DNA of 64,000 nucleotides, taken from positions 178,609 through 242,608 of the forward strand of contig BCKL01000019.1 in NCBI GenBank assembly GCA_001600635.1, given 5' to 3'. The notes under the pieces are model-generated. The model was not told the DNA's origin. It ran no database searches and saw only the letters and a list, made by a program, of their open reading frames with translations. The DNA is from Leucosporidium creatinivorum (Eukaryota; Basidiomycota; Microbotryomycetes; Leucosporidiales; Leucosporidiaceae). Shown piece after piece: positions 52,303 through 64,000 of this stretch (position 1 is the first letter of the stretch; each line of letters starts with the position of its first letter). A program made the translations under genes and the position numbers.

Positions 52303-53918
52303 CTACTCGACTAAGCCGCCCGCCGCTTCGATCTCGTGCCAAACGAGGTCGAGGACGGTGAGAAGGGTGTACATCTTCTCCGTGTTGACTTGGTAGCTGT
52401 AATGCTGTGGTGTGAGAACGGAAGAGGGAGGTCAGCTTGCGAGCGAGGATGGGGAAGAGGGGACAGGAGAAGGCCGAGCTCACCTGGCCGTCGAACGAGT
52501 CGGCTGCGTCGTGGATAGCAAGAGAGAGATGTGTCAGCTTTTCAACGTCTCGACAGCACTATGCACCACTACGCACCTCCGTCCGTAGCATTGTACCACT
52601 CCATCCGCAGGACCGCTCCCTCGGCGGTCGTCTGAAGCTTCTTGTGCTTGTCCATGATCTGATCAATGCCCTCAATGAAGGCCTTGACGGCCGCTGGTCC
52701 TTGGGAGCTGTAGTAGGGTGTTCCCTCCGCCATCCCTGGCGCATGGCTGCCCTGCCAGATGGGGATAAAGTGAGGCGAGAAGCGCTGGTTCATGTCGAGG
52801 ACGGGGTGGATGAAGTTTGTCGTCGCTACGTCGAGCTTGTACTGTAGGTGGATACCACCGTCGAAGAGGAGAATTGGGGAGAGCTGTTGAGCCGCTGGGG
52901 GAAGGGATGAGGTGTAGGCGAGGATGTTGTTCAGCGAGGTCCTGCGAAGCGAGTGAAAGGACGAGACGAGGAGCAAGGAGGATCAGAGGAAGAGAAGGAG
53001 AGAGAAGCAAAGGTCAGCCTCCTACTCGACCCGACAGCACACGGTACTCACCACTGAAGGTCGACGAAACGCTTGCCCCGAATCGAGCGGCCGGGGCAGA
53101 CACCCTCGGGCAGGCTCTCGAGCAGGTCGTAGATGCCAGTTCGACAGGGAGAGATGACGTTCCAGTTATCGGCTAGCCGGTCGTTGAAGAGATGTTCGCC
53201 ACGGCAGCCACCGCGAAGCTGAGGATCGACGACGGCGCCCGAGAGATCGCCTGTCAAAGTTCGGCGAAAGGTCAGCTTGCGCGTTCTCACCCGCATTCAG
53301 ACAGCAGTTGTTGAGCTCACCAGTCAAGAAGATGAGGAGCGCGTCCCAGACGTGCCGAATGAAGCTATCGCCCGAGAAGAGGACAGCGCCGAACCCGGCG
53401 AGGAGATCGCAGGCTTCGTCTCGAGAGAAGACGTGCGGCGGCGGGCAGGTGTTCATGTCGAAGGAGAAGCCTGCGAATGGTGCTGGAGCATTGTCGGTGG
53501 GGTCATAAGGGGGGAGGGTGCTGTTCCTCGTCTTGCTCGGCGCGTCGTCCTTGATCTTGGACTCCTTGAGGTCCAGCAGCAGCTCGGTGAGATTGCACCC
53601 TTGGTAAAGGTGCGAGTAGGAACGTGGTCCTACGGCCGTATTGTACTGCCGAGTCCAGGTGTAGTGGGATAGGCGTTTGAGCTGCTGTTGCGATTGAGGA
53701 TGAAGCGACGCGAGCGAGAGCACGGCAACGGCGAAGACGACCAAGGCGAGCCAGAGGATGGGGCGACGAGCTGGTCGGTCGGTATAAGGAGGCAGTGAGG
53801 ATGGCGGGAAGCTACTGGCGTCCTCCTGCATCGAGACCTTCGCGTAGCCGGTCGTCATGCTGCTGCTGCTGTCGAGAGAGCGAGGCTGAGGTCGGGAGAT
53901 GGAAAGGCGGCGCGACAT
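52303..53918 (-). CDS. Type II membrane GDS/DxxH protein (PC-esterase/TBL-like), candidate glycan O-acyltransferase
   Basis: ATG 53918 opens a cytosolic tail of about 50 residues, then a membrane anchor (ILWLALVVFAVAVLSLASL) and a lumenal domain. The domain has a Cys/Asn-rich start (YQGCNLTELLLDLKESK), the block VLFSGDSFIRHVWDALLIF with GDS in the nucleophile position, and near the end FDGQHYSYQ. There an intron splits DxxH (Asp-Gly-Gln-His), the second hallmark of SGNH/PC-esterase-type enzymes such as plant TBL and fungal capsule or wall O-acetyltransferases. The last helix reads EKMYTLLTVLDLVWHE. Substrate and reaction are inferred. Its promoter faces that of a glycosyltransferase gene, and the end of a close paralogue lies at the right edge of the window. 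Confidence 0.75.
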
Positions 53919-54402
53919 GGCGTGGGAGGGATTCGCCGTGTGCGTGCGGTCGAAGCGACTGGGAACCGGTACAGAAGAACGAGGAGAGGAGGGAGGAAGA
54001 GCGATGCAGCGAGCAAGAGCAGCGAAAGAGTTCGGCGCCGGGAGAGGGGAGACGCGTCCGTGACTTGCGTCAACGCGTCGAAAGCTTAAATGAGCTACAG
54101 AAGCTTAGAGAGCAGCTGTAGCCAAGTATGAGCTACTAGAAAGCTGTCAGAGCGGTCTGAGATAGGCTCAGCTTCGGCGACCCCCCTTTAAGCTCGGCGC
54201 GAGGCTTATTGCAAGGTGTGCTCGGCTGAGGCTTGAAGCTGAACAGTTGCGAGGCTACAGGACAAGAGTCAATTCTCAATTCTTGACTATAAGTGTCATT
54301 CACCGAGGTCAACTTGTCCCCTCCTCTCCCCCCTGCCTTTCCACTCGCTCGCGGTCGAGACTCTTTGCCTTCGCTCTTCATCTCGCATCACTGCGCACCG
54401 AC
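53919..54402. promoter_or_regulatory. Divergent promoter, GDS-family / HIRWGD glycosyltransferase
   Basis: A stretch of 484 bp between divergent ATGs, with no gene. A head-to-head layout is compatible with co-expression of a glycan-modifying enzyme and a glycosyltransferase. Confidence 0.5.
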
Positions 54403-55721
54403 ATGGCTCGCTCAGGATCTCCAGAGGAGGATACTAGCGAGCTACAGGACCTGCTACACCACCGCCAGTCCCATTCGGAGGAGCCGACATCGACTTGGGA
54501 GGAAGAGACGCAGGCTACTACGTTAGGAAGAGAGGGACGGAGGAATCAGAACGGGCGCAAGGTCGGCGTGCTTTCTGTCTTGACCCTGGGGCTCTTGCTG
54601 CTGCTCGGGCTGAGCTACACGGCTGGGCGGAGGAGCGCAGGACCAGCTGAGAAGAGCGCCTCAGGGTGAGTCTCGAAAGTCCGGTTGCTGCAGCGTGGTG
54701 GCTCGGGAGGGGTACAGAGTCTTACAGAACTAATCGAGGCCTCCCTCCCCCAGCCCAACATCAACTCCCCAAGTTCAACGGCTGCTCATTCGCCCCTGGG
54801 CCGACAACGAAGGACTGGGAAGCGTCCTACAGCTGCTCAAGAGTACGGAGGTCCATTCGCTGCTCTTCAGGTTCACAATATTGACCTCCTTCGTCTACAG
54901 TCCCCATCATCATCGCCGAACGCGTAGCCAACGCGACCTTCTGGCTCTCGGAAACCGAATCCATCCACCACTACTCCTCCTCTCACCTCTACAACGCTCG
55001 CTACTTCAACAGCACCTTCCCACTCGGCAAGACCTGCCTCCTCAGCCACTACCTCCCTCTGGCAGACCGACTCCCCCTCGTCCGAGCTGTCTGTCAGCCC
55101 GACTCGGCCTCCCCTTCCGCACTCGCCCAAGCCGCCGACCTCGGCCAACGACTCGCCCTCTGCGCCATCATCATCGACGATGCACCTCACGAGGTACACC
55201 AAGACCTCAATGGCTGCATCTCGCACTTCACGCGCGAGCGACTCGGAGGGATTGAGCAGCGACGGCTCGGCGCTTCCAAGGCCGTCTCGATTGGCGTCCA
55301 CATCCGCTGGGGCGACTCGGCTCGACCTGGCCAATCCCACTTCCGAGGTTCGATGGATCTGGAGCATGTCAACACCGTCGTTCGGGATGCTCAGGCGCGG
55401 TACCAGCAGCTCGACATTCGAGTCGCGATGGAGAATCACACGGCCACCGTGCTGTCCCAGCTCAACTTTCCCTACACGCTCATCGACGGCGACGACGACT
55501 TGGGTGACCTCAAGTTACTGGCCGACAGCGACCTTCTCCTCGTCGGGAGTTCGAGCTATGGCGCGCTGGCTCACCTGCTCGCCCCGTCGAAGGGCCTCAC
55601 CATCGTCGAGGGCAATGACCTCAAGTATAGGAATACGCCGAGGGAGTTTGTGCTCTTTGGAGATTATGCCAGCGGGTCACTGAGTGCGTTGGATCGGGTG
55701 TTGGGCTGGTCGGAGCGGTAG
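54403..55721 (+). CDS. Type II membrane glycosyltransferase, fucosyltransferase-like (HIRWGD)
   Basis: Golgi-type enzyme. ATG 54403 opens a cytosolic tail of about 48 residues and an anchor (VGVLSVLTLGLLLLLGLSYTAG). Joining three exons gives VQRLLIRPWADNEGLGSV, KSTEV/PIIIAERVANATFWL, FPLGKTCLLSHYLPL, AVSIGVHIRWGDSARPG and the closing nucleotide-sugar-side motif DLKLLADSDLLLVGSSSYGA. HIRxGD plus a late D/S-rich loop is the pattern of GDP-fucose-using families GT11/GT23/GT65/GT68. The exact family is not decided and other sugars are possible. The join KSTEV/PIII uses a GTCCAT donor at about 54859, less standard than others here. It is part of the glycan block at 52-64 kb. Confidence 0.7.
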
Positions 55722-56392
55722 AGCGTCGAGCTCGGAGCAGGGGAGTTGGAGCCGGATCAGTGCTGTTAAAGACAGGGCAAGCAGCTGTAAAGAGCATCGA
55801 GTGTTGTTGTACCATCCACTTCGATCGGAGAGGCGTTTGCTCGCTCCCGACAGGCCTCAATCAACATCCTCTCGGCGAGCTCGCTGCCTTCGCCTCGACC
55901 CTTCGCTTCTCGTTCGCCTTGCTCTTCAGGAGCTGTTGCTTCGCTAGGGCTCTGCTCGTATGTTCCGTGATGATTTTTCTGGATTCCACAAGGCTTCAGA
56001 TGAACAAAGAGTCAACGAAGGCTACCTCGGCGAGAAGCGCGGAGCGGGAATGAGCAAAAGGGGGGGTTGAGCGACGGCACTCTCTAACAGCTGAGTGTGT
56101 GGCGAGGCGTCCGTATATTGAAGCTACAGATACAATGAGAGGGGAACGGGGCTAAAAAGCAGCCGATTCGTATACGTGGGCGTGAGTGACAGTGATGGTC
56201 GAGCGAGACCGAGGACATGAGTGAGAAGAGAGGGACTGCTAGCAAGGTGGAGCGAGGGGTGCGGAAGATGGAAGGTGCAACGAAGAGACACCGCCGAGCT
56301 TGAAGAGGGTCTATGTACTGATGAGGCGAAACTAGAAACCTGGGAGAAGAGAGAGAGCACTAAACCGAACGAGAGGGCGACGAGGCGACGAC
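55722..56392. other. Convergent 3' region, no gene
   Basis: Some 670 bp between the convergent glycosyltransferase and PriA-like genes. Only chance frames are seen. Confidence 0.45.
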
Positions 56393-57607
56393 TCAAGCCT
56401 GAGTGGTCGAACAGTAGTACTGGCCTGTCGAGCTAGTACGGCGGTAGTAGCCTGTAGAATGGACGAGACGATGTGTCAGCTCTCTGCCTGTGAGTCGACG
56501 CCGAAATGCCATCGCCGAAGCCTGGCGCCGAGATGATGAATCAGAAGGCTCACCGTTCGGGCAGGTGATGCCGCACTTGAAGTTGTAGCAGTGAACGCTG
56601 CCAATCCCGTTGTACGAAGGAGGGCAGGCGTTTCCTTCCTGCAGGATGAGAAGCGCCGACGGCAACGGTCAGCTTCGGCGCTCGAGGAAAAGGCTAGGAA
56701 GGGTCACTTACAGCACCACAGTTGTTCGCATCGAACTTGGTGTTGACGCAAGCGGTTCCAGCGGCGTTAGGGGTCTGTATTAGGTAGCGACGAGAGGGCA
56801 AGGTCAGCCTCGGCGATGAGGAGAAGGCGCCGAGCCGAGCCTTAACTCACCTGGCCGAAGTTGCAGACGAGAGTGCAGCGAGCGCCAGGGGTACAGAGAT
56901 AGACACCATTGCGAGGAGCCTTGGGGCAGACCTTGCCGGTGCAGATATTGGCGTTCTTGTAGCAAAAGCCGTTACGGAGGGTGTAGTTGTTGTTGCAGAC
57001 GATCTGGCACCGTCCGGTGTTGCTGTTACACGCGACGCGACCGTTTGCAGGGATTTCTGAGTCGAGGGCATATTTGCGACATATGGGAGCTGCTCGGCGA
57101 AGAGAAGAAACGGCAGGGGAAGGGCGGGGGGAAGGGTCAGCTCTCCAGAGTCACTCTGAGACTCTGATCAGCAAAGCCAAGACGCACTGCTGGCTTTGGC
57201 TCCCTTGCCGCACTGCACCTTGGCAACAGCGCGACGGTGGATCTCTCGGCGCTCGAGGTCACGCTTGGTTAAGCCCTCAGCCTTGGCCATCTCCTCGATG
57301 GCGCGCTCGACCATGTTGAAGTGGCTCTCGTACTCGAGGGCGCGAGCCTTCTTGGCGTTGCGAGCGTTGGTGGCAGCGATGCGGGAGACGGCTTCGGCGC
57401 GGGCTTCGCGCTTGTCGAGGAGAGGGTAGTCGCGGCCGAGGAGGACTGGATCGTCGAGCGAGAACTCTGCAAGGCGGAGGAGCGCAAGTTAGCGGTGCTT
57501 TTGAGAGCACAGGGATCGGGAAGCGAGGGAGCCTCACCTTTGAGGGGAGACGCCGAGGTGAGGCTGAGGAAGGCCACGGTGGCGAGGAGAGTGGTGAAGG
57601 TCCGCAT
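56393..57607 (-). CDS. PriA-like cysteine-rich secreted protein with Kex2-type sites
   Basis: Secreted protein. ATG 57607 gives a signal peptide (MRTFTTLLATVAFLSLTSAS). The pro-like region contains LLDKREARAEAV, a Lys-Arg followed by Glu-Ala/Arg-Ala dipeptides as at Kex2/dipeptidyl-aminopeptidase sites, and further dibasic sites (LTKRDLERR). After an amphipathic stretch the mature part is cysteine-rich: APICRKYALDSEIP, TGRCQIVCNNNYTLRNGFC, ICTGKVCPKAPRNGVYLC, TPNAAGTACVNTKFDANNCG and ACPPSYNGIG ... CGITCPNG, closing GQYYCSTTQA. The spacing matches the C-terminal domain of basidiomycete PriA-type proteins, which are small wall-associated secreted proteins of unclear role. Six exons. It sits inside the glycan block but on its own promoter. 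Confidence 0.78.
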
Positions 57608-59131
57608 GGCTAGTGAGGAAAGGAGTGCAGGAAGGAGGGTATGAGAGGGAGGGAGAGAGAGGAGAAGCGAGAAAGGGACTGCTCGAAAGGGCTCTTAGGA
57701 AGAGATAGTCGGCAGCTCAGCCCCAGAGTTTCACTCTCGGCGCTGCCCTCGCGTCGCGACCCACCGCCGGGAAGCTCTCGCAGCTCAGGATCAGCCACTT
57801 CTCCCAACCATGCCAGCGAAAGTCCTTGATCGTACAGACCCTCAAGCTGTCCCGTTTAAATTTATCCAGGCTCTCGGTGCTCTCAAAGACGGGTCGGGGA
57901 AGGGGGAGCACAGCGCCGAGCCATCGAGCCAAGGGAGGTGACTGTACCAAGCTATACACCGTCACTGCCTCCAACGTTTTCCCGTCTTTGGGCAACTCCA
58001 ATAGTCCTCGTGCGAAGGACAAAGGTGCCCTTCTTTGCTCGAACCTCTCGGCGCAGGTTCTGGGACTTCGTTCGGCCGAGTCTTTGCCCCACGCCGCTCA
58101 GCATCGGAGCACCGTGTCAATCTTGTACCCCGGTGGGTGCTTCGAAGCATCACACTTTCCACCTTCCGCTCTGGGAAAGAGTAGACAGCTTTGTCTGTCG
58201 CAGAGATAAGACGGGCCTGGCGGCGCCAGCTTCTCGAGCACTCGATCTCGCTCTCCTCCTCTCGAACGCCTAGGATTTGCGCGAAGGGTTAGCGGGTTGC
58301 AAGCTGAGCAACCCACTGAGAGCCAGGCATTGCGGCGACTGTCCCGAGCAGCGAGCACAAGCGCAACGACTTGAAGCGAAGGAATCTCGCCTTTTCCGTC
58401 TTCGCAGCTCGGCGCCGAGCGATTCAGCGGCCGGGTCGCGCAGAGTCCCGGGAAAACCTCTATAAGCCACTCTAACTGTGTCGTGGTGTGAGGATAGAGA
58501 CCCGCGCCGGGATGCTGGAGCCCTCGGAAAAACAGCTCGGCGCAACACTTGCACTTCGGTCGACGTCTCGAGATCGCTCGTAACAGCGAGCAGGCATGGA
58601 TGTACGATGCCGGCTCGCCAAAGCCGTTTAATGTGCTCTGAATCCGCCTCTTGCCGTCGGACCTGCAGATTCTGCGAGCTCAGCTTGCCTCAGAGTGGGT
58701 GAAGACAACGCCGAGCTTTGCCTTGTCTGGGCAGCTTGAGGCGAACACTACAAGCAAGAAGAACCAGCCTCAGTCCCGATTGTTGAGATGTTTCATGCTG
58801 CGATTCTCGCTGGTCTGCGACCGGAGAAGCGTGAGTCGAACGGGGGAATTGAAAGGCAGCGAGCAAGTGGGTCGAAAAGTCGACCGCTGGCATCACCGCA
58901 GGCAAGCTAAGACGCGGAGACGCATAGGAAGCGGGTGCTACAAATCGCTCAGCTTGAACGTCGAAGCAAGCTGAGGAAAGAGGCTGCCCTCCCGTGAATC
59001 GAGGTGCTGCGACCGAGGCCAGCGCCGAGCTTGCGCTTCGCTTGTCTCGATAATGCACGCTGCTGAGACGATTGGGAGCTGTATCGTTGAAGATTTTCTC
59101 ATCTATGCTGTCTATGTCCTCTATCTCCTCT
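57608..59131. other. Intergenic, no firmly supported gene
   Basis: A stretch of 1.5 kb between two minus-strand genes. A minus-strand frame at about 57717-58150 (SFARGLLELPKDGK, FRWHGWEKWLILSC) is open for over 130 codons but starts without ATG, and I could not connect it to a start. It also holds a perfect CTCGGCGCCGAG at 58408-58419. Probably the promoter and leader of the PriA-like gene. Confidence 0.4.
58408..58419. repeat. 12-bp palindrome CTCGGCGCCGAG
   Basis: Perfect copy in the 1.5-kb intergenic region upstream of the PriA-like gene. Confidence 0.8.
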
Positions 59132-61335
59132 TCAATAGTAGTCCCAGTCGCTCGGCCATGAGCGCCCGTAAATGTCTCGACAGACGTCGCTGCCCGTCCT
59201 GCCCAGGCCGACTCGGAGGTAGCAGAGGTAGATGGTGAACGTGCTGTATGTGCTGCCTGTAGATTGGAAGCGAAGGCGAGGCGTAGAGTGGCAAGGAGCG
59301 AAAGAGAGGGCAGACAAAGATCAGCGGAAGGTCGACCGAGAAGCGAGCGAAGAGTATGGACGACTCACCGACGAACTTGTCACCCCACTTGCAGACCTGC
59401 TGCACCATCGCTCCCAGCTGCATCGACTCTCCCAGCTCCGGATCCACGAGATGGCCGAACCACGGCTGGTTGAACTCGTACCAAAAGTGCGCCCGAGGGA
59501 ACTTCTGCCTGAATCTCCAGCGAAAGTCGTAGCTCTTGTTCTCGTCCGACGCGATGTAGATGTCTTGGTCGGCCGGCATCATCCCTGCGAGCAACTCGGC
59601 CAGCTCGGAGATCGTCTTCTCGCCCTTGTGGACCGAGGCGAAGTCGCCGCGACGGATGTGAGCGCAGTTGAACCCAGGCTTGCCCGTACTGAGCATGGCC
59701 GCCTTCTGGAGCTGCTGAACGATGGAGGTCGCCGTAACGTTGATGAGAGAGCCTGGGACGAGACCGGTGGTGAGGAGGTCGCCGAACGCCTTGTTCTCGG
59801 CCGGGTCAACGAACTTGTGGAAGCGGCGGAAGGTACTGGTGAGGTAGAGGATGGGTTCAGCTTGATGAGGAGCGAACCAGCTAGTGATCGCCTTGTCGGT
59901 GGCGCCTCGGAAGCCGCCAGCGGCCTTGAAGGTGATCCGAGGAATCTCGGCGGGGATGGGGCCGAGGGAGGAGGGGCCGATGTCGATGTGGAAGATGTGG
60001 CTCGGGGGGGACGGGAACGTGCGCTTGAGGAAGGAGTGCTCGCGGAAGTTCTGTGTGAGGCGAGAAGGTTAGTAGTTGATCCAGCGAAGGAGAGAACGAG
60101 CGACGAGCAAAAACCTACGGGGAAGGTGGTGCTGAAGGCGTCATAGTCGAGGAAGTAGTCGAGCATGACGACGACGTCCTTGCCGTGATGCGAGTAGAAC
60201 TCGGGGAGAATGAGGGTGCGGTTGAGAGTCTTGGCGATGGCGAGCGCCGAACGAAGACTGGCTCGAAGACTATTCCGGCCGTTATCCTCGATCTCGGGGC
60301 CGTAGTAGACGAGGTACTTGGTGTCCTTCGTGTCGAAGTACTCGGGCGCGTCCTGCGTCCACATGCCGAGACCGCGGAAGCGGTACTCCTTGGTGCGCTT
60401 GCCGTCGACCCAGTTGTTGTGGATGCAGAAAGGCTCCACGTTGGCCCGGTTGGTGATGTCGCGAGAGAAGTATTGGAAGCCATTGGGGAACAGAAGAGGG
60501 TTGAGGACTCGGTAGCGGACGCGGAGGGTGTTCTCCTGAAGGATGGTGTTGAGCAGGTGCTGCTCGCGCCGGTCGGGGTTCTTGGACACCTTGTCGATGA
60601 GAAGGTCGTAGAAGTCGGCCATCTTGGGGGTACCGCGAGCGTAGAAGAGACCTGAGTTGACGAACTCGCGGAAGGGAGCTTCGGGGTCGAGCTCGGTGAA
60701 GCCGGCTCGGGCGTCCGATTGGATCTCGTAGTCGTAGTCGCCGTTGAAGAGGAAGGGGAAGGGGCTCTTGATCCAGATGACGTCGAGATCACTCTGGAGG
60801 ATGTGGAAGCCAGCGCGAAGGGAGGTAGAGACGATGTTGCACCGCCGATTCACGATTCGGCGAAAGCCGTCCGAAGTGTACGAGTCGGATCCTCCGAGTT
60901 TGGCGACTTCCTCGTCGAGGTAGGCATAGTAGGGTACACCCTCGGCCTTGGCGTAGTCGACAGCCGCCTGATCCATGGCAATGAGGAGGAAGTTGGTGAT
61001 GCCAGCGGCTCGAACGCAGTGGACGAAGTTGCGAGTGACGGCGAGGTAGTTGCCTGTAGCAAAAGCGAGCATTACATTGTTTGCTGGCGAGGCTACCTCC
61101 TGCAGCTTGGGTGAGAGCGCGGGGCTTCATCGACTGGTCTGCGCGAGCTGGTTTCGGCGAGAGCTGAGAGGCTCGACTTGAGCGGGGCAAAGGCGGTGGT
61201 GAATTTGAGGTCGCTGAGCGGAAGGCGCGTTGTCGAAGGCGAAGCGAGGTAGACGAAGGAGACGAGGATGAAAGCGACGCCTGCCAGCAGATACGGCAGC
61301 CTCAGGCCGGAGAGGTTGAGAGTAGAGGGCGACAT
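59132..61335 (-). CDS. Two-domain glycosyltransferase: DxD nucleotide-sugar transferase plus HIRRGD fucosyltransferase-like half
   Basis: ATG 61335 (MSPSTLNLSGLRLP) opens a type II anchor (YLLAGVAFILVSFVYLA). After an intron (donor GTCGAG, about 53 nt) the first catalytic half reads VMLAFATGNYLAVTRNF, FHILQSDLDVIWIKSPFPF (DxD motif), FVNSGLFYARGTPKM and REQHLLNTILQ, the layout of GT77-type nucleotide-diphospho-sugar transferases. The second half, in the same open frame, starts DTKYLVYYGPEIEDNGRNS, has LNRTLILPEFYSHHGKDV, CAHIRRGDFASVHKGEK, DIYIASDENKSYDFRW and the end TFTIYLCYLRVG ... DWDYY, resembling O-fucosyltransferase-type enzymes with their HIRRGD site. A single 700-residue protein would thus carry two sugar-transfer centres in tandem. 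Only about three introns, fewer than its neighbours. Donor sugars are inferred. Confidence 0.8.
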
Positions 61336-61585
61336 GTTGGCAGGTAGCCAAGAGCCTGAGGTGTTCTCCTGTTCTCCTGTGCTCCTACGACGTACCCCGC
61401 GAGCTGAAGTAGCGAACAAGTGATGAGTCAGGCTGAATTAGGGGGCGAGTGGGAGGCCAGCTAGAGAATCGAGGTAAGATGTAGAAAGAGAGCAAGAGCG
61501 CAAGAGGCGAGCTCGAGCTCGATCGCAGCTCTCCTTTCGCCTCCTCGCAGCTCTTCATCTCGACAGGTCGCTTCGACTAGAGGGA
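61336..61585. promoter_or_regulatory. Short bidirectional promoter of two glycosyltransferase genes
   Basis: Only 250 bp separate the ATGs of the leftward two-domain glycosyltransferase and the rightward GT10 fucosyltransferase, so both promoters must overlap here. It contains an AGCTCGAGCTC palindrome at about 61510. Co-expression is a reasonable inference. Confidence 0.65.
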
Positions 61586-63367
61586 ATGGACCGCTCGCTG
61601 CTGCACAAGATCACACCCCTGCAGCGCAACGTCGCCATCGTTGTCGTTGTCTTCCTCCTCTTCGTCCATCTCCTCAGCCCCTCCGCCAGCCGCCCGAGCC
61701 TCTTCTCGGCGCCGATACATCAAACTTCAGCAGCAGCAAGAACCTACTGGGCTACAGAACTCGACACGGACGCCTCTGTCCAGGCTTTCCTCGCTCAACT
61801 CTACTCGGAGCGAGGGACGAGCCGCAACTCGTCCACCGCCGCCGCTTTCGCTCGCGGCGCTCGTCGCAACGACCGCACGCTCGGGAGCAGGACACCAGTT
61901 ACAATATACTGGCCAGAGCCTCCCTATTTCTGGGACAAGTTCTACGGCACAGGGAAGGGAGAGCGGATCGAGGTCAAGGGATGCAAGGTGGAGTGCTCGC
62001 TCGTCTCGGGCAGGAGCAAAGATCCGGCTCAGAGGGACGCCCATCTCCTTCTCAACTACAACACCTACCGCTCCACCATCGACGGCTTGCCTGAGAAGGG
62101 CCCTCGGACCCTGGAGTCGTGGCAGAAGTCGGCAGTCTACTCGATGGAGCCGAATACCTTTGCTGTGTGGCATCAGGAGCGGTTGAAGGCGAGTCGACTC
62201 GTCAGTAGGATCTCTGATCGATCGCGCTAACCCTAACCACCTACAGCTCTTCGACATTGTCGCCTCGTTCTCGCAGTACGCCGATATTCGCTTCGAGACC
62301 TACCCTCGCATCCTTTGCCCCGCTGGTCCAAGCAAGGACTGCATCGGACTGGCTCAACTGGAGGATGAGGAGACCGTCAAGCGGTATTTTGGGCCAGGGA
62401 AGGACGCCAGGTGAGCTCGTCTCTTTCTCGAGAGCGCCGGCCGAACTCTCTCGCTGACCGTCCTGCACTCTCTGCAGCCCATTCTTTGACGCCGAGCTCG
62501 CCAAGAAAGCACCTCTCCCGACCGAGGACGGCCCTCGGTTAGCCACCTTCATCTCCAACTGCGGCGGCGGGTCTCGCAATCGTCTCATCACCGACCTCGT
62601 CAAGGAGGGCATCGTTTTTGATCATTACGGCAAGTGCAAGGAGGATGTATTCGGTGGTGCACCGCAGGTGAGTTCTCGTCTTCTGCGACACCGTCCTCAC
62701 CTCTCGACAGCTGCTAAAGCGCTTCCTCTCCCCTCGGTAGACCTACGCCCAGCTCGTCGCCCCACTCGTCTCGGAGCATGGCTACGGGTTCAAAGAGACT
62801 GTTCGTATTTGTTTTCCCGTTCCCAAACACCCTCACGTCCTCCTTGAACGTAGAAGCATAGAACTGACCCCTCGACATCTCCCTCAGATCCTCGCCCTCT
62901 ACGACTTTGTCCTCGTCGCCGAGAACACGGTCCTCTCCGACTACATCAGCGAAAAAGTAACGCAAGGCCTCCTCGCCGGCGGGATCCCCATCATCCTCGG
63001 AGCCCCCAACCTCGGCCACGAGCTTCAATCCTCCCTCCCCTCCGCTGTCCGCACCTCCTCTGCCTCCCACCCCGCGTACCTCGACGCCACTCGTTTCTCT
63101 CCTGCCGAGCTTGCCGCCGAATTGCGCTCCCTTCATGCCTCGCCGGAACGGAAAAGCAAGTTCCGTTCGTGGATCAAGGAGCTGCCGAGCAAGGAGCTGC
63201 CGATCGTGCGGTACGCTCAGAGGACGATGGAGCACGACTTTACGACCAAGGAGATGATGGAGCCGCTGTGCAAGCTGTGCGAGCACTATCACGAGCAGTA
63301 TGATTGGGTCGGGGAGGCGCCACTGTCGCCTTCGTCAGCCGTGGTGGACTCGGCGGCGCAAGGCTGA
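61586..63367 (+). CDS. GT10-type (alpha-1,3-) fucosyltransferase
   Basis: Golgi enzyme transferring fucose from GDP-fucose to a glycan. ATG 61586 gives a short tail and an anchor (NVAIVVVVFLLFVHLLSPS). The lumenal part has TPVTIYWPEPPYFWDKFYG, HLLLNYNTYRSTIDGLP, LFDIVASFSQYADIRFETY, LATFISNCGGGSRNRLITDL and the GT10 signature region VLVAENTVLSDYISEK followed by GLLAGGIPIILGAPN, where animal and plant enzymes have a conserved AFENS...DYVTEK...GTVPVV.GAPN. Five introns; the second exon begins LFDIV after a GTCAGT donor. The C terminus (CKLCEHYHEQYDWVG) is complete. GT10 enzymes are uncommon in ascomycete yeasts. Linkage specificity is not readable from the sequence. It shares its promoter region with the two-domain glycosyltransferase. 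Confidence 0.88.
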
Positions 63368-63590
63368 TCAGCTGCACCGTAGAAGGGGACGGAGCGGCCG
63401 AGTGGGGGTGGTTCATAGCATAGCATGACTCGTCATTTGTACTTCGTTGTTTGCCTCGGTGTTTGTCTCGCTGGGTTCCCTCACCGCATGCGAAGCTCGG
63501 GGCGAGCGAGGACATCAGCGAGAGGCCTTTCTCCGCGAAGACTCTCGGCAGCGAGTGGTACATCCCTATCAATTACCACGCTGCTCAAGA

Positions 63591-64000
63591 TTACGACGTG
63601 AATAGGCATTGGTAGCTCTCTTTGCCCGGCGGACACAGCTCAGTCAGATCCCACATGCCGCCCATCGCCTTCGTCTCGCCCCAGAGTAGATCGAGGTAGT
63701 TGAGGATGAGATGCGCCTTCTCCATCTATGAGAGAAGAGTGTGATGGTCGAGTAGGGGAGGCAGATGTGGGGGAGTCGCGTAGAGAAAGGGTGCGAAGGA
63801 GAAGGAGCGCCGAGGGACGGGAAGGAGGGGAAGCCGCAGTCGAGTGATGCAGAGTCGTGAGGAGATGACAGGGGAGATGGTGAGAAGAGCGATGGACCGT
63901 GTCGAGAGCGCACGGCGCGCAGAGTGAGAGTGGATGGGAGAGTTCGGAGATCAGCCCTCCTCCTCGTCTCGGCGGTCGTCTCACCCCTCGCCAAAGACGA
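63591..64000 (-). CDS. Second GDS/DxxH-family protein, C-terminal exon only (5' part beyond window)
   Basis: The last exon (about 63591-63725) reads MEKAHLILNYLDLLWGET, KAMGGMWDLTELCPPG and ends YQCLFTS. It aligns with the end of the GDS/DxxH protein at 52303-53918: both have EK, then three residues, a Leu-rich stretch, LDL, one residue, W, one residue, E, then A-x-GG. This copy is longer by about 20 residues with two cysteines. A TCATAG acceptor precedes the exon; a GTGAGA donor near 63,980 would make a 250-bp intron, but the upstream phase cannot be checked at the window edge. The catalytic motifs lie outside, so activity cannot be judged. Confidence 0.55.

What the first reader, a model, noticed from the sequence alone, without database searches (positions are those of the whole stretch)
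52303..64000. Candidate cluster for a fucosylated, acylated surface glycan
Seen: within about 11 kb stand a GDS/DxxH membrane protein, a HIRWGD glycosyltransferase, a two-domain DxD + HIRRGD glycosyltransferase, a GT10-type fucosyltransferase and a second GDS/DxxH gene end. They come in two head-to-head pairs, interrupted only by a PriA-like secreted protein. Known: cell walls of Microbotryomycetes-type yeasts are reported to contain mannose with fucose, and PC-esterase/TBL-type proteins O-acetylate wall glycans. Inference: these genes build and acylate one fucose-containing polymer or glycoprotein glycan. Glycan genes are usually scattered in fungi, so linkage would be notable.
Basis: partly seen in the sequence, partly recalled or inferred. 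Interest (0 to 1): 0.75.

Follow-up and report, generated by a model that had tools for sequence, protein, structure and literature searches.

The report
Yeast surface-sugar gene island
In this yeast, genes predicted to make, fucosylate and acylate a cell-surface sugar chain sit together in one stretch of the genome, much as capsule genes do in bacteria, whereas in fungi such genes are usually thought to be scattered.

Summary
In the window stand a probable SGNH-fold membrane protein (A), a HIRWGD protein (B), a small secreted-looking protein (C), a Nucleotid_trans + O-FucT protein (D), a GT10 fucosyltransferase (E) and the last exon of an A-like gene (F). A/B and D/E are divergent pairs.

They open a 116-kb stretch of contig C19 (615 kb, 2.2% of a 27.7-Mb genome). 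Further on lie three tandem ESKIMO1-like PC-esterase genes, GDP-mannose 4,6-dehydratase (first step of GDP-fucose synthesis), a Pvg1-like pyruvyl transferase, a GT92-like exon and paralogues of A, B and D. Whole-genome searches found GT10, PC-esterase, Nucleotid_trans and pyruvyl transferase on C19 alone, and 5 of 6 O-FucT matches there; controls GT69 and GT15 gave 0 of 4 loci each.

In Leucosporidium creatinivorum all five relatives found lie on contigs of one and the same length.

Best reading: an island for one fucosylated, O-acylated, perhaps pyruvylated surface glycan. Shared product and co-expression are inferred. B is not confirmed as a glycosyltransferase. Of the 116 kb, 58% is unread or reads N.

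The parts
52303..53918 (-). Gene A: 5 exons, 427 aa, N-terminal membrane anchor + probable SGNH-fold domain (GDS, DGQH); candidate glycan O-acyltransferase/esterase
   Evidence: splice model; anchor; model of ortholog P0010; GDS invariant in 7 of 7 relatives aligned
54403..55721 (+). Gene B: 3 exons, 390 aa, N-terminal membrane anchor, HIRWGD; candidate GT, not confirmed
   Evidence: motif in 5 of 5 relatives aligned; no Pfam family or PDB glycosyltransferase; matches only on C19
53919..54402 (.). 484-bp divergent spacer between A and B
56393..57607 (-). Gene C: 6 exons, 264 aa, Cys-rich, signal-like N-terminus; the 'PriA-like' protein; relation to the cluster unknown
59132..61335 (-). Gene D: anchor + Nucleotid_trans (PF03407) + O-FucT (PF10250), 662 aa; first junction uncertain (35-nt intron or one-base slip)
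   Evidence: weak POFUT2 match
61336..61585 (.). 250-bp divergent spacer between D and E
61586..63367 (+). Gene E: 5 exons, 502 aa, anchor + GT10 fucosyltransferase; the only GT10 match found in the genome
63591..63725 (-). Gene F: last exon of an A/P0016-like gene; the rest lies beyond the window in a stretch that reads N

Best explanation
The interval is the left edge of a glycan-assembly island (C19:230.9-346.6 kb of this genome, from window 52.3 kb to beyond its end) in a Leucosporidium-like yeast. GDP-mannose is turned towards GDP-fucose by the island's GMD, with GDP-fucose synthase encoded elsewhere. Golgi-anchored transferases then build and fucosylate the chain: the D pair (a nucleotide-sugar transferase fused to an O-FucT domain), the GT10 enzyme E, a GT92-like enzyme and perhaps the B family. 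SGNH/PC-esterase proteins (A, F, G1-G3) put acyl groups, most likely acetyl, on it, and a Pvg1-like enzyme may add pyruvate ketals. The product is most likely a surface or secreted heteroglycan. Shown: the genes, the families of D, E, G1-G3, GMD and the pyruvyl transferase, their linkage, and that searches found several of these families on C19 alone. Inferred: Golgi site, acetyl as the acyl group, the roles of A, B and F, a single shared product, co-regulation through divergent promoters.
For: Families: D and E; E aligned to fucosyltransferase A of PDB 9s6a over the donor-site block; GMD over 99 residues to PDB GMDs, E 3.7e-51; G1-G3 PC-Esterase 2e-22 to 4.5e-17, G2 to ESKIMO 1 (PDB 6cci) 3.3e-9; pyruvyl transferase to PDB 5ax7, 1.5e-30; GT92-like 0.005, below cut-off. 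Location in exon-by-exon searches: GT10 1 of 1, PC-Esterase 3 of 3, Nucleotid_trans 2 of 2, pyruvyl transferase 1 of 1, O-FucT 5 of 6 at E <= 0.01 (of the 3 that reach the cut-off exon by exon, 2), B family 5 of 5 loci at E <= 1e-4 on C19. Controls: GT69 0 of 4, GT15 0 of 4 loci. Linkage: 5 of 5 L. creatinivorum relatives on contigs of 330,047 bases. P0016 joins an A/F-like part to an O-FucT part. Membrane anchors in A, B, D, E. Fucose in the wall of Microbotryum is stated as known in PMC4469406 (passages).
Against: GDP-fucose synthase is on C23, not in the island. Two of four A-family loci at E <= 1e-3 are on C41 and C33, with a further weak match on C29. The best O-FucT match of the genome is on C29, and three of the five on C19 lie outside the 116-kb stretch. 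C has no glycan link. A and C have no Pfam match and B none of use. Other PF16363 loci exist off C19, one of them full-length (C5), so a second GMD is not excluded. No expression or chemical data. Many members are paralogue pairs or sets (A, B, D, G, H, K), so duplication alone adds to clustering. Of 115,703 bases 55,214 were not read and 12,360 read N.
Confidence: 0.55

Rival explanations
1. A neighbourhood of duplicated Golgi genes without a common product: local and segmental duplication multiplied a few transferase and SGNH genes, which now act on different N-glycans, O-glycans and wall polymers.
For: Paralogue pairs A/A', D/D', H/H', K/K', three G genes, several B relatives on C19.
Against: Duplication does not bring unrelated families (GT10, GMD, PC-Esterase, pyruvyl transferase, GT92-like) together; controls GT15 and GT69 are elsewhere.
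Confidence: 0.25
2. The genes decorate protein-linked glycans (mannoproteins) rather than a free polysaccharide: O-FucT and GT10 cap N- or O-glycans, and pyruvyl and acyl groups are peripheral.
For: The closest solved relative of the pyruvyl enzyme is 'Pyruvyl transferase 1' (that it is fission-yeast Pvg1 acting on N-glycan galactose is recalled). E's best solved relative is a glycoprotein fucosyltransferase. D's second domain is weakly like POFUT2.
Against: G2's relative ESKIMO 1 points to a polysaccharide acceptor (that ESKIMO 1 acetylates xylan is recalled). No search for a polymerase was made, so this is open.
Confidence: 0.35
3. The SGNH proteins are esterases that remove acyl groups rather than transferases that add them.
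For: The fold matches of A's ortholog are mostly esterases, including carbohydrate esterases; PMC2824669 predicts esterase activity for the PC-esterase family (passages).
Against: The only solved relative of G2 found is ESKIMO 1; peptidoglycan O-acetyltransferase PatB is also among A's fold matches.
Confidence: 0.25
4. A glycosylated secondary metabolite or glycolipid rather than a surface glycan.
For: PMC10481521 (passages) speculates that some Dikarya O-FucT subfamilies belong to secondary-metabolite clusters, as for strobilurin.
Against: No polyketide or peptide synthase was noticed in the exon pieces read by eye, but 58% of the stretch was unread or N and no family search for them was made.
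Confidence: 0.07

Closest known systems
E. coli K-12 colanic acid (wca) cluster
   Same: gmd beside fucosyltransferases and an acetyltransferase for one fucosylated surface polysaccharide (annotation seen; its pyruvyl transferase WcaK is recalled)
   Different: Bacterial cluster with polymerase and fcl inside; here a eukaryotic, intron-bearing, Golgi-type set with the fucose synthase elsewhere; similarity is of plan, not of descent
Arabidopsis ESKIMO 1/TBL29 O-acetyltransferase
   Same: G2 shares the GDS block and the DCxHxCLPGxxDTWN block; G1 and G3 have the same blocks
   Different: Plant xylan acceptor (recalled); here three tandem fungal copies inside a glycan island
Cryptococcus Cas1p and capsule genes
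   Same: PC-esterase domain linked with a surface glycan O-acetylation system (PMC2824669 passages)
   Different: Cas1p carries a multi-TM acyltransferase domain; capsule genes are scattered (recalled); here CAP59-type genes are not on C19
Aspergillus galactosaminogalactan cluster (recalled)
   Same: A fungal gene cluster for one secreted, modified polysaccharide
   Different: Fewer genes, other sugars and enzymes (recalled); not compared here by sequence
Pyruvyl transferase 1 of PDB 5ax7 (S. pombe Pvg1, recalled)
   Same: Same family at 1.5e-30
   Different: Here in one stretch with fucose genes

Membership tests
GT10 fucosyltransferase (E) | PF00852 above curated cut-off | tested here: met
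   60.5 bits against 23.9
GT10 fucosyltransferase (E) | conserved donor-site block EN..DY..EK..AG.P...GAPN (its role is recalled) | tested here: met
   alignment to 9s6a
GT10 fucosyltransferase (E) | GDP-fucose transfer | not testable with these tools
   needs an enzyme assay
O-FucT (D, C-terminal domain) | PF10250 above cut-off and HxRxGD | tested here: met
   40.2 bits against 31.5; HIRRGD in D, P0001, P0002, P0003; profile to POFUT2 0.0056
Nucleotid_trans, GT77-like (D, N-terminal domain) | PF03407 above cut-off | tested here: met
   111.4 bits against 22; the CAZy number is recalled
PC-esterase/TBL (A) | PF13839 match | tested here: not met
   no match at E <= 1; none in the relatives scanned (P0010, P0013-P0016)
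SGNH/GDSL superfamily (A) | GDS and DxxH motifs | tested here: met
   both in A; GDS in 7 of 7 relatives, DGxH in 6 of 6 that reach it
SGNH/GDSL superfamily (A) | SGNH fold | tested here: met
PC-esterase/TBL (G1-G3, outside window) | PF13839 above cut-off and ESKIMO 1 similarity | tested here: met
   80.9, 75.7, 63.3 bits against 27; 6cci 3.3e-9, G2 only tested
Fucosyltransferase superfamily (B) | known family profile | tested here: inconclusive
   no relevant Pfam match, no PDB glycosyltransferase by profile, no profile link to D; only the HxRxGD motif
GDP-mannose 4,6-dehydratase (C19:332.1-333.6 kb) | closest to GMD among SDR enzymes | tested here: met
   one 99-residue exon piece: 10 of 11 distinct PDB sequences at E <= 1e-20 are named GDP-mannose dehydratases, best 3.7e-51
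Fungal biosynthetic gene cluster | functionally coherent genes on one stretch | tested here: met
   58% of the stretch unread or N
Fungal biosynthetic gene cluster | linkage kept in another species | tested here: met
   contig level only: 5 of 5 L. creatinivorum relatives on contigs of 330,047 bases; order there not seen
Fungal biosynthetic gene cluster | co-regulation and one product | not testable with these tools
   no expression or chemical data

The most novel reading that the evidence does not exclude
A eukaryotic counterpart of a bacterial capsule locus: a single, evolutionarily maintained island of over 100 kb in Leucosporidium-type yeasts holds most of the pathway for one fucosylated, O-acylated and pyruvylated surface polysaccharide, from nucleotide-sugar synthesis to final decoration, and much of contig C19 is devoted to it.
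Probability: 0.33. Interest if true: 0.85.

Novelty: new variant of a known kind. Interest (0 to 1): 0.7.

Why it matters
Glycan biosynthesis genes in fungi are usually treated as scattered, so pathways of unusual wall sugars are worked out gene by gene. An island that puts GMD, fucosyltransferases, O-acyl- and pyruvyl-transferase homologues together would give the candidate pathway for the fucose reported in walls of such yeasts in one step, make gene functions testable by deletion, and show that eukaryotes can assemble capsule-like loci.

Tried and rejected
Rejected: that the Golgi transferases of this genome are all on C19. Rejected: that A is a Pfam PC-esterase. Led nowhere: B against D by profile comparison (probability 0.6%); structure of B's ortholog (pLDDT 44.9), not used for a fold search; B profile against PDB; P0001 alone against PDB, no match; Rfam on the window, none; Pfam on four exon pieces of C19:460-615 kb, one O-FucT piece below cut-off. 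In the VIA comparison ESKIMO 1 was not among the 50 rows shown for A, which proves nothing. Literature: ten searches were answered. The ones aimed at fungal glycan gene clusters, fucosyl- or pyruvyltransferases, exopolysaccharide or Leucosporidium (two of them listed no paper) showed no title or beginning of an abstract describing such an island; the library lacks most subscription papers. Not done: genome-wide gene prediction; synteny in other Pucciniomycotina (I had no such genomes); searches of this genome for GT92, for C, or for polymerases and synthases.
Full report
Where it is. The window is G000:C19:178609-242608 of a 27.7-Mb assembly of 63 contigs; C19 has 615,231 bases, 2.2% of the genome. 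The closest named relatives of D, A and B are from Leucosporidium creatinivorum (74, 78 and 80% identity), so I take the organism to be a Leucosporidium-like yeast; its name was not given.

What is in the window. Spliced models give A (427 aa), B (390 aa), C (264 aa), D (662 aa) and E (502 aa), as listed under parts. Pfam confirms D as Nucleotid_trans plus O-FucT and E as GT10. E aligns with a solved alpha-3-fucosyltransferase through the donor-site block. A, B, D and E have one strong N-terminal hydrophobic stretch, as expected of Golgi type II proteins; C's N-terminus looks like a signal peptide. A/B and D/E are divergent with 484 and 250 bp between start codons. F shows only its last exon (63591-63725); 24 of its residues are 75% identical to a stretch of P0016. 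The left part of the window looks ordinary: of ten exon pieces scanned from 6-47 kb, six matched V-ATPase (two), PI31, an alpha/beta hydrolase, an FAD-binding domain and GST above cut-off, one a P450 just below it, two only unrelated families below cut-off, one nothing; none a glycan family (a selection of the pieces).

B. HIRWGD is invariant in 5 of 5 relatives, but no family or solved structure confirms a transferase, and its model is too poor to use. It is kept as a candidate on motif and context.

D. Relatives in Rhodotorula toruloides and Hyaloraphidium curvatum have both domains, and the L. creatinivorum one is listed with both. The profile touches POFUT2 weakly (0.0056); P0001 alone found nothing.

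Beyond the window. A run of 6,866 N follows the window's end (C19:242609-249474); whether gap or withheld is not known. Then come three tandem genes G1-G3 (249.5-254.5 kb, G1 cut by the N run), PC-Esterase at 2e-22, 7.9e-21 and 4.5e-17, G2 matching ESKIMO 1; H, without a Pfam match and with a paralogue at 266 kb; a GDSL-like lipase/acylhydrolase (1.9e-12) and a GT92-like exon (0.005, below cut-off). At 267-270.5 kb are a second A and K, with a filamin repeat at its cut-off (8.1e-6); K has a paralogue at 342-343 kb. At 332.1-333.6 kb is GMD, at 337-340 kb a second D with an extra N-terminal part, at 344.3-345.3 kb a pyruvyl transferase, and B relatives lie at 322.6, 330.0 and 336.4 kb, with weak ones at 316.8 and 345.8 kb.

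How exclusive. Searches of the whole genome, exon by exon and therefore lower bounds, gave GT10 1 locus, PC-Esterase 3 (one over cut-off exon by exon, all three when spliced), Nucleotid_trans 2, pyruvyl transferase 1, all on C19; B family 5 of 5 loci at E <= 1e-4 on C19; A family 2 of 4 at E <= 1e-3, plus a weak match on C29. O-FucT gave 6 loci at E <= 0.01, 5 on C19 (two of them D and its paralogue); only three reach the cut-off exon by exon, 2 of these on C19, and the strongest is on C29. Controls chosen as ordinary fungal Golgi families gave 0 of 4 loci on C19 for GT69/CAP59 and 0 of 4 for GT15. Under uniform independent placement, 5 or more of 6 O-FucT loci on C19 has probability 3e-8, 4 or more of 5 with D and its paralogue counted once 1e-6, and 2 or more of the 3 over cut-off 1.5e-3. 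These numbers ignore duplication; GMD, PC-esterase and pyruvyl transferase were searched after I had seen them or their like near the window, so their location is descriptive. PF16363 also matches C5, C20, C1 and C18; only the C19 locus was tested as GMD, and a second GMD at C5:752-754 kb is not excluded. GDP-fucose synthase, sought with E. coli fcl, gave one match on C23.

Conservation. The tables name five L. creatinivorum proteins, relatives of D, A and B (P0001, P0010, P0011, P0017, P0018); each is given one contig of length 330,047. I infer that it is one and the same contig; order was not visible, and P0011 and P0018 are probably the counterparts of the second A and of the B relative at 501 kb. 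For R. toruloides the relatives of A and D come from contigs of different length and say nothing on linkage. In 'Microbotryomycetes sp. NB124-2' P0016 carries an A/F-like part followed by an O-FucT part, either a fusion or two neighbours merged by annotation; both readings support linkage.

Mechanism. The parts make a plausible line: GMD to GDP-fucose, D, E and other transferases building and fucosylating in the Golgi, SGNH and PC-esterase proteins acylating, a Pvg1-like enzyme pyruvylating. The plan resembles the colanic acid cluster, where gmd, fcl, fucosyltransferases and an acetyltransferase stand together. That is analogy, not membership.

Literature. PMC4469406 (passages) states that fucose in the Microbotryum wall is known, that Microbotryum and Puccinia graminis have a candidate fucosyltransferase not found in the other basidiomycetes it surveyed, and lists five GT92 proteins in Microbotryum. 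PMC8092308 (passages) predicts fucosyl donors in Basidiomycota except Ustilaginomycotina and cites Takashima et al. 2000 on fucose in urediniomycetous walls (not read). PMC10481521 (passages) maps GT10 and O-FucT in Pucciniomycotina and speculates on secondary-metabolite roles of some O-FucTs. PMC2824669 (passages) defines the PC-esterase family. PMC8355462 (passages) predicts a fucose-containing polysaccharide in lichen basidiomycetes. No passage seen describes a cluster like this one.

Limits. Within the island 55,214 of 115,703 bases were not read and 12,360 read N, so gene counts are lower bounds and unrelated genes may lie between; C19:1-178.6 and 347.6-460.0 kb were not read either. Gene models rest on splice rules and homology. 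One product is inference.

Noticed in passing
C19:242609-249474 and 323404-328878 (L002, L046): Long runs of N inside the island, the first beginning at the base after the window's end; gap or withheld stretch cannot be told apart.
   Followed up: no
window 61099-61135: D's reading frame breaks once; relatives continue through it, so either a 35-nt intron or a one-base slip in a C run.
   Followed up: partly
C19:337182-340369 (L013, L015): The paralogue of D carries an extra N-terminal part with a possible DxD, also present in R. toruloides P0002 but not in D; no relevant Pfam family matches it.
   Followed up: partly
P0016: A/F-like part and O-FucT part in one protein of Microbotryomycetes sp. 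NB124-2; its O-FucT part matches C19:595 kb.
   Followed up: partly
C19:269243-270502 and 342011-343035 (L011, L048): Paralogue pair K/K': a filamin repeat followed by a possible SGNH domain, an architecture resembling NXPE proteins (recalled).
   Followed up: partly
C19:492027-492638 and 555215-555895 (L033, L039): Two proteins with a similar stretch by eye, one with GDSN; no Pfam family above cut-off.
   Followed up: partly
C19:573286-578088 (L041): Coding stretches that look by eye like a Copia-type retrotransposon.
   Followed up: no
C19:84643-84993, 127833-128522, 595071-595505: Three more O-FucT matches far from the island but on the same contig.
   Followed up: partly
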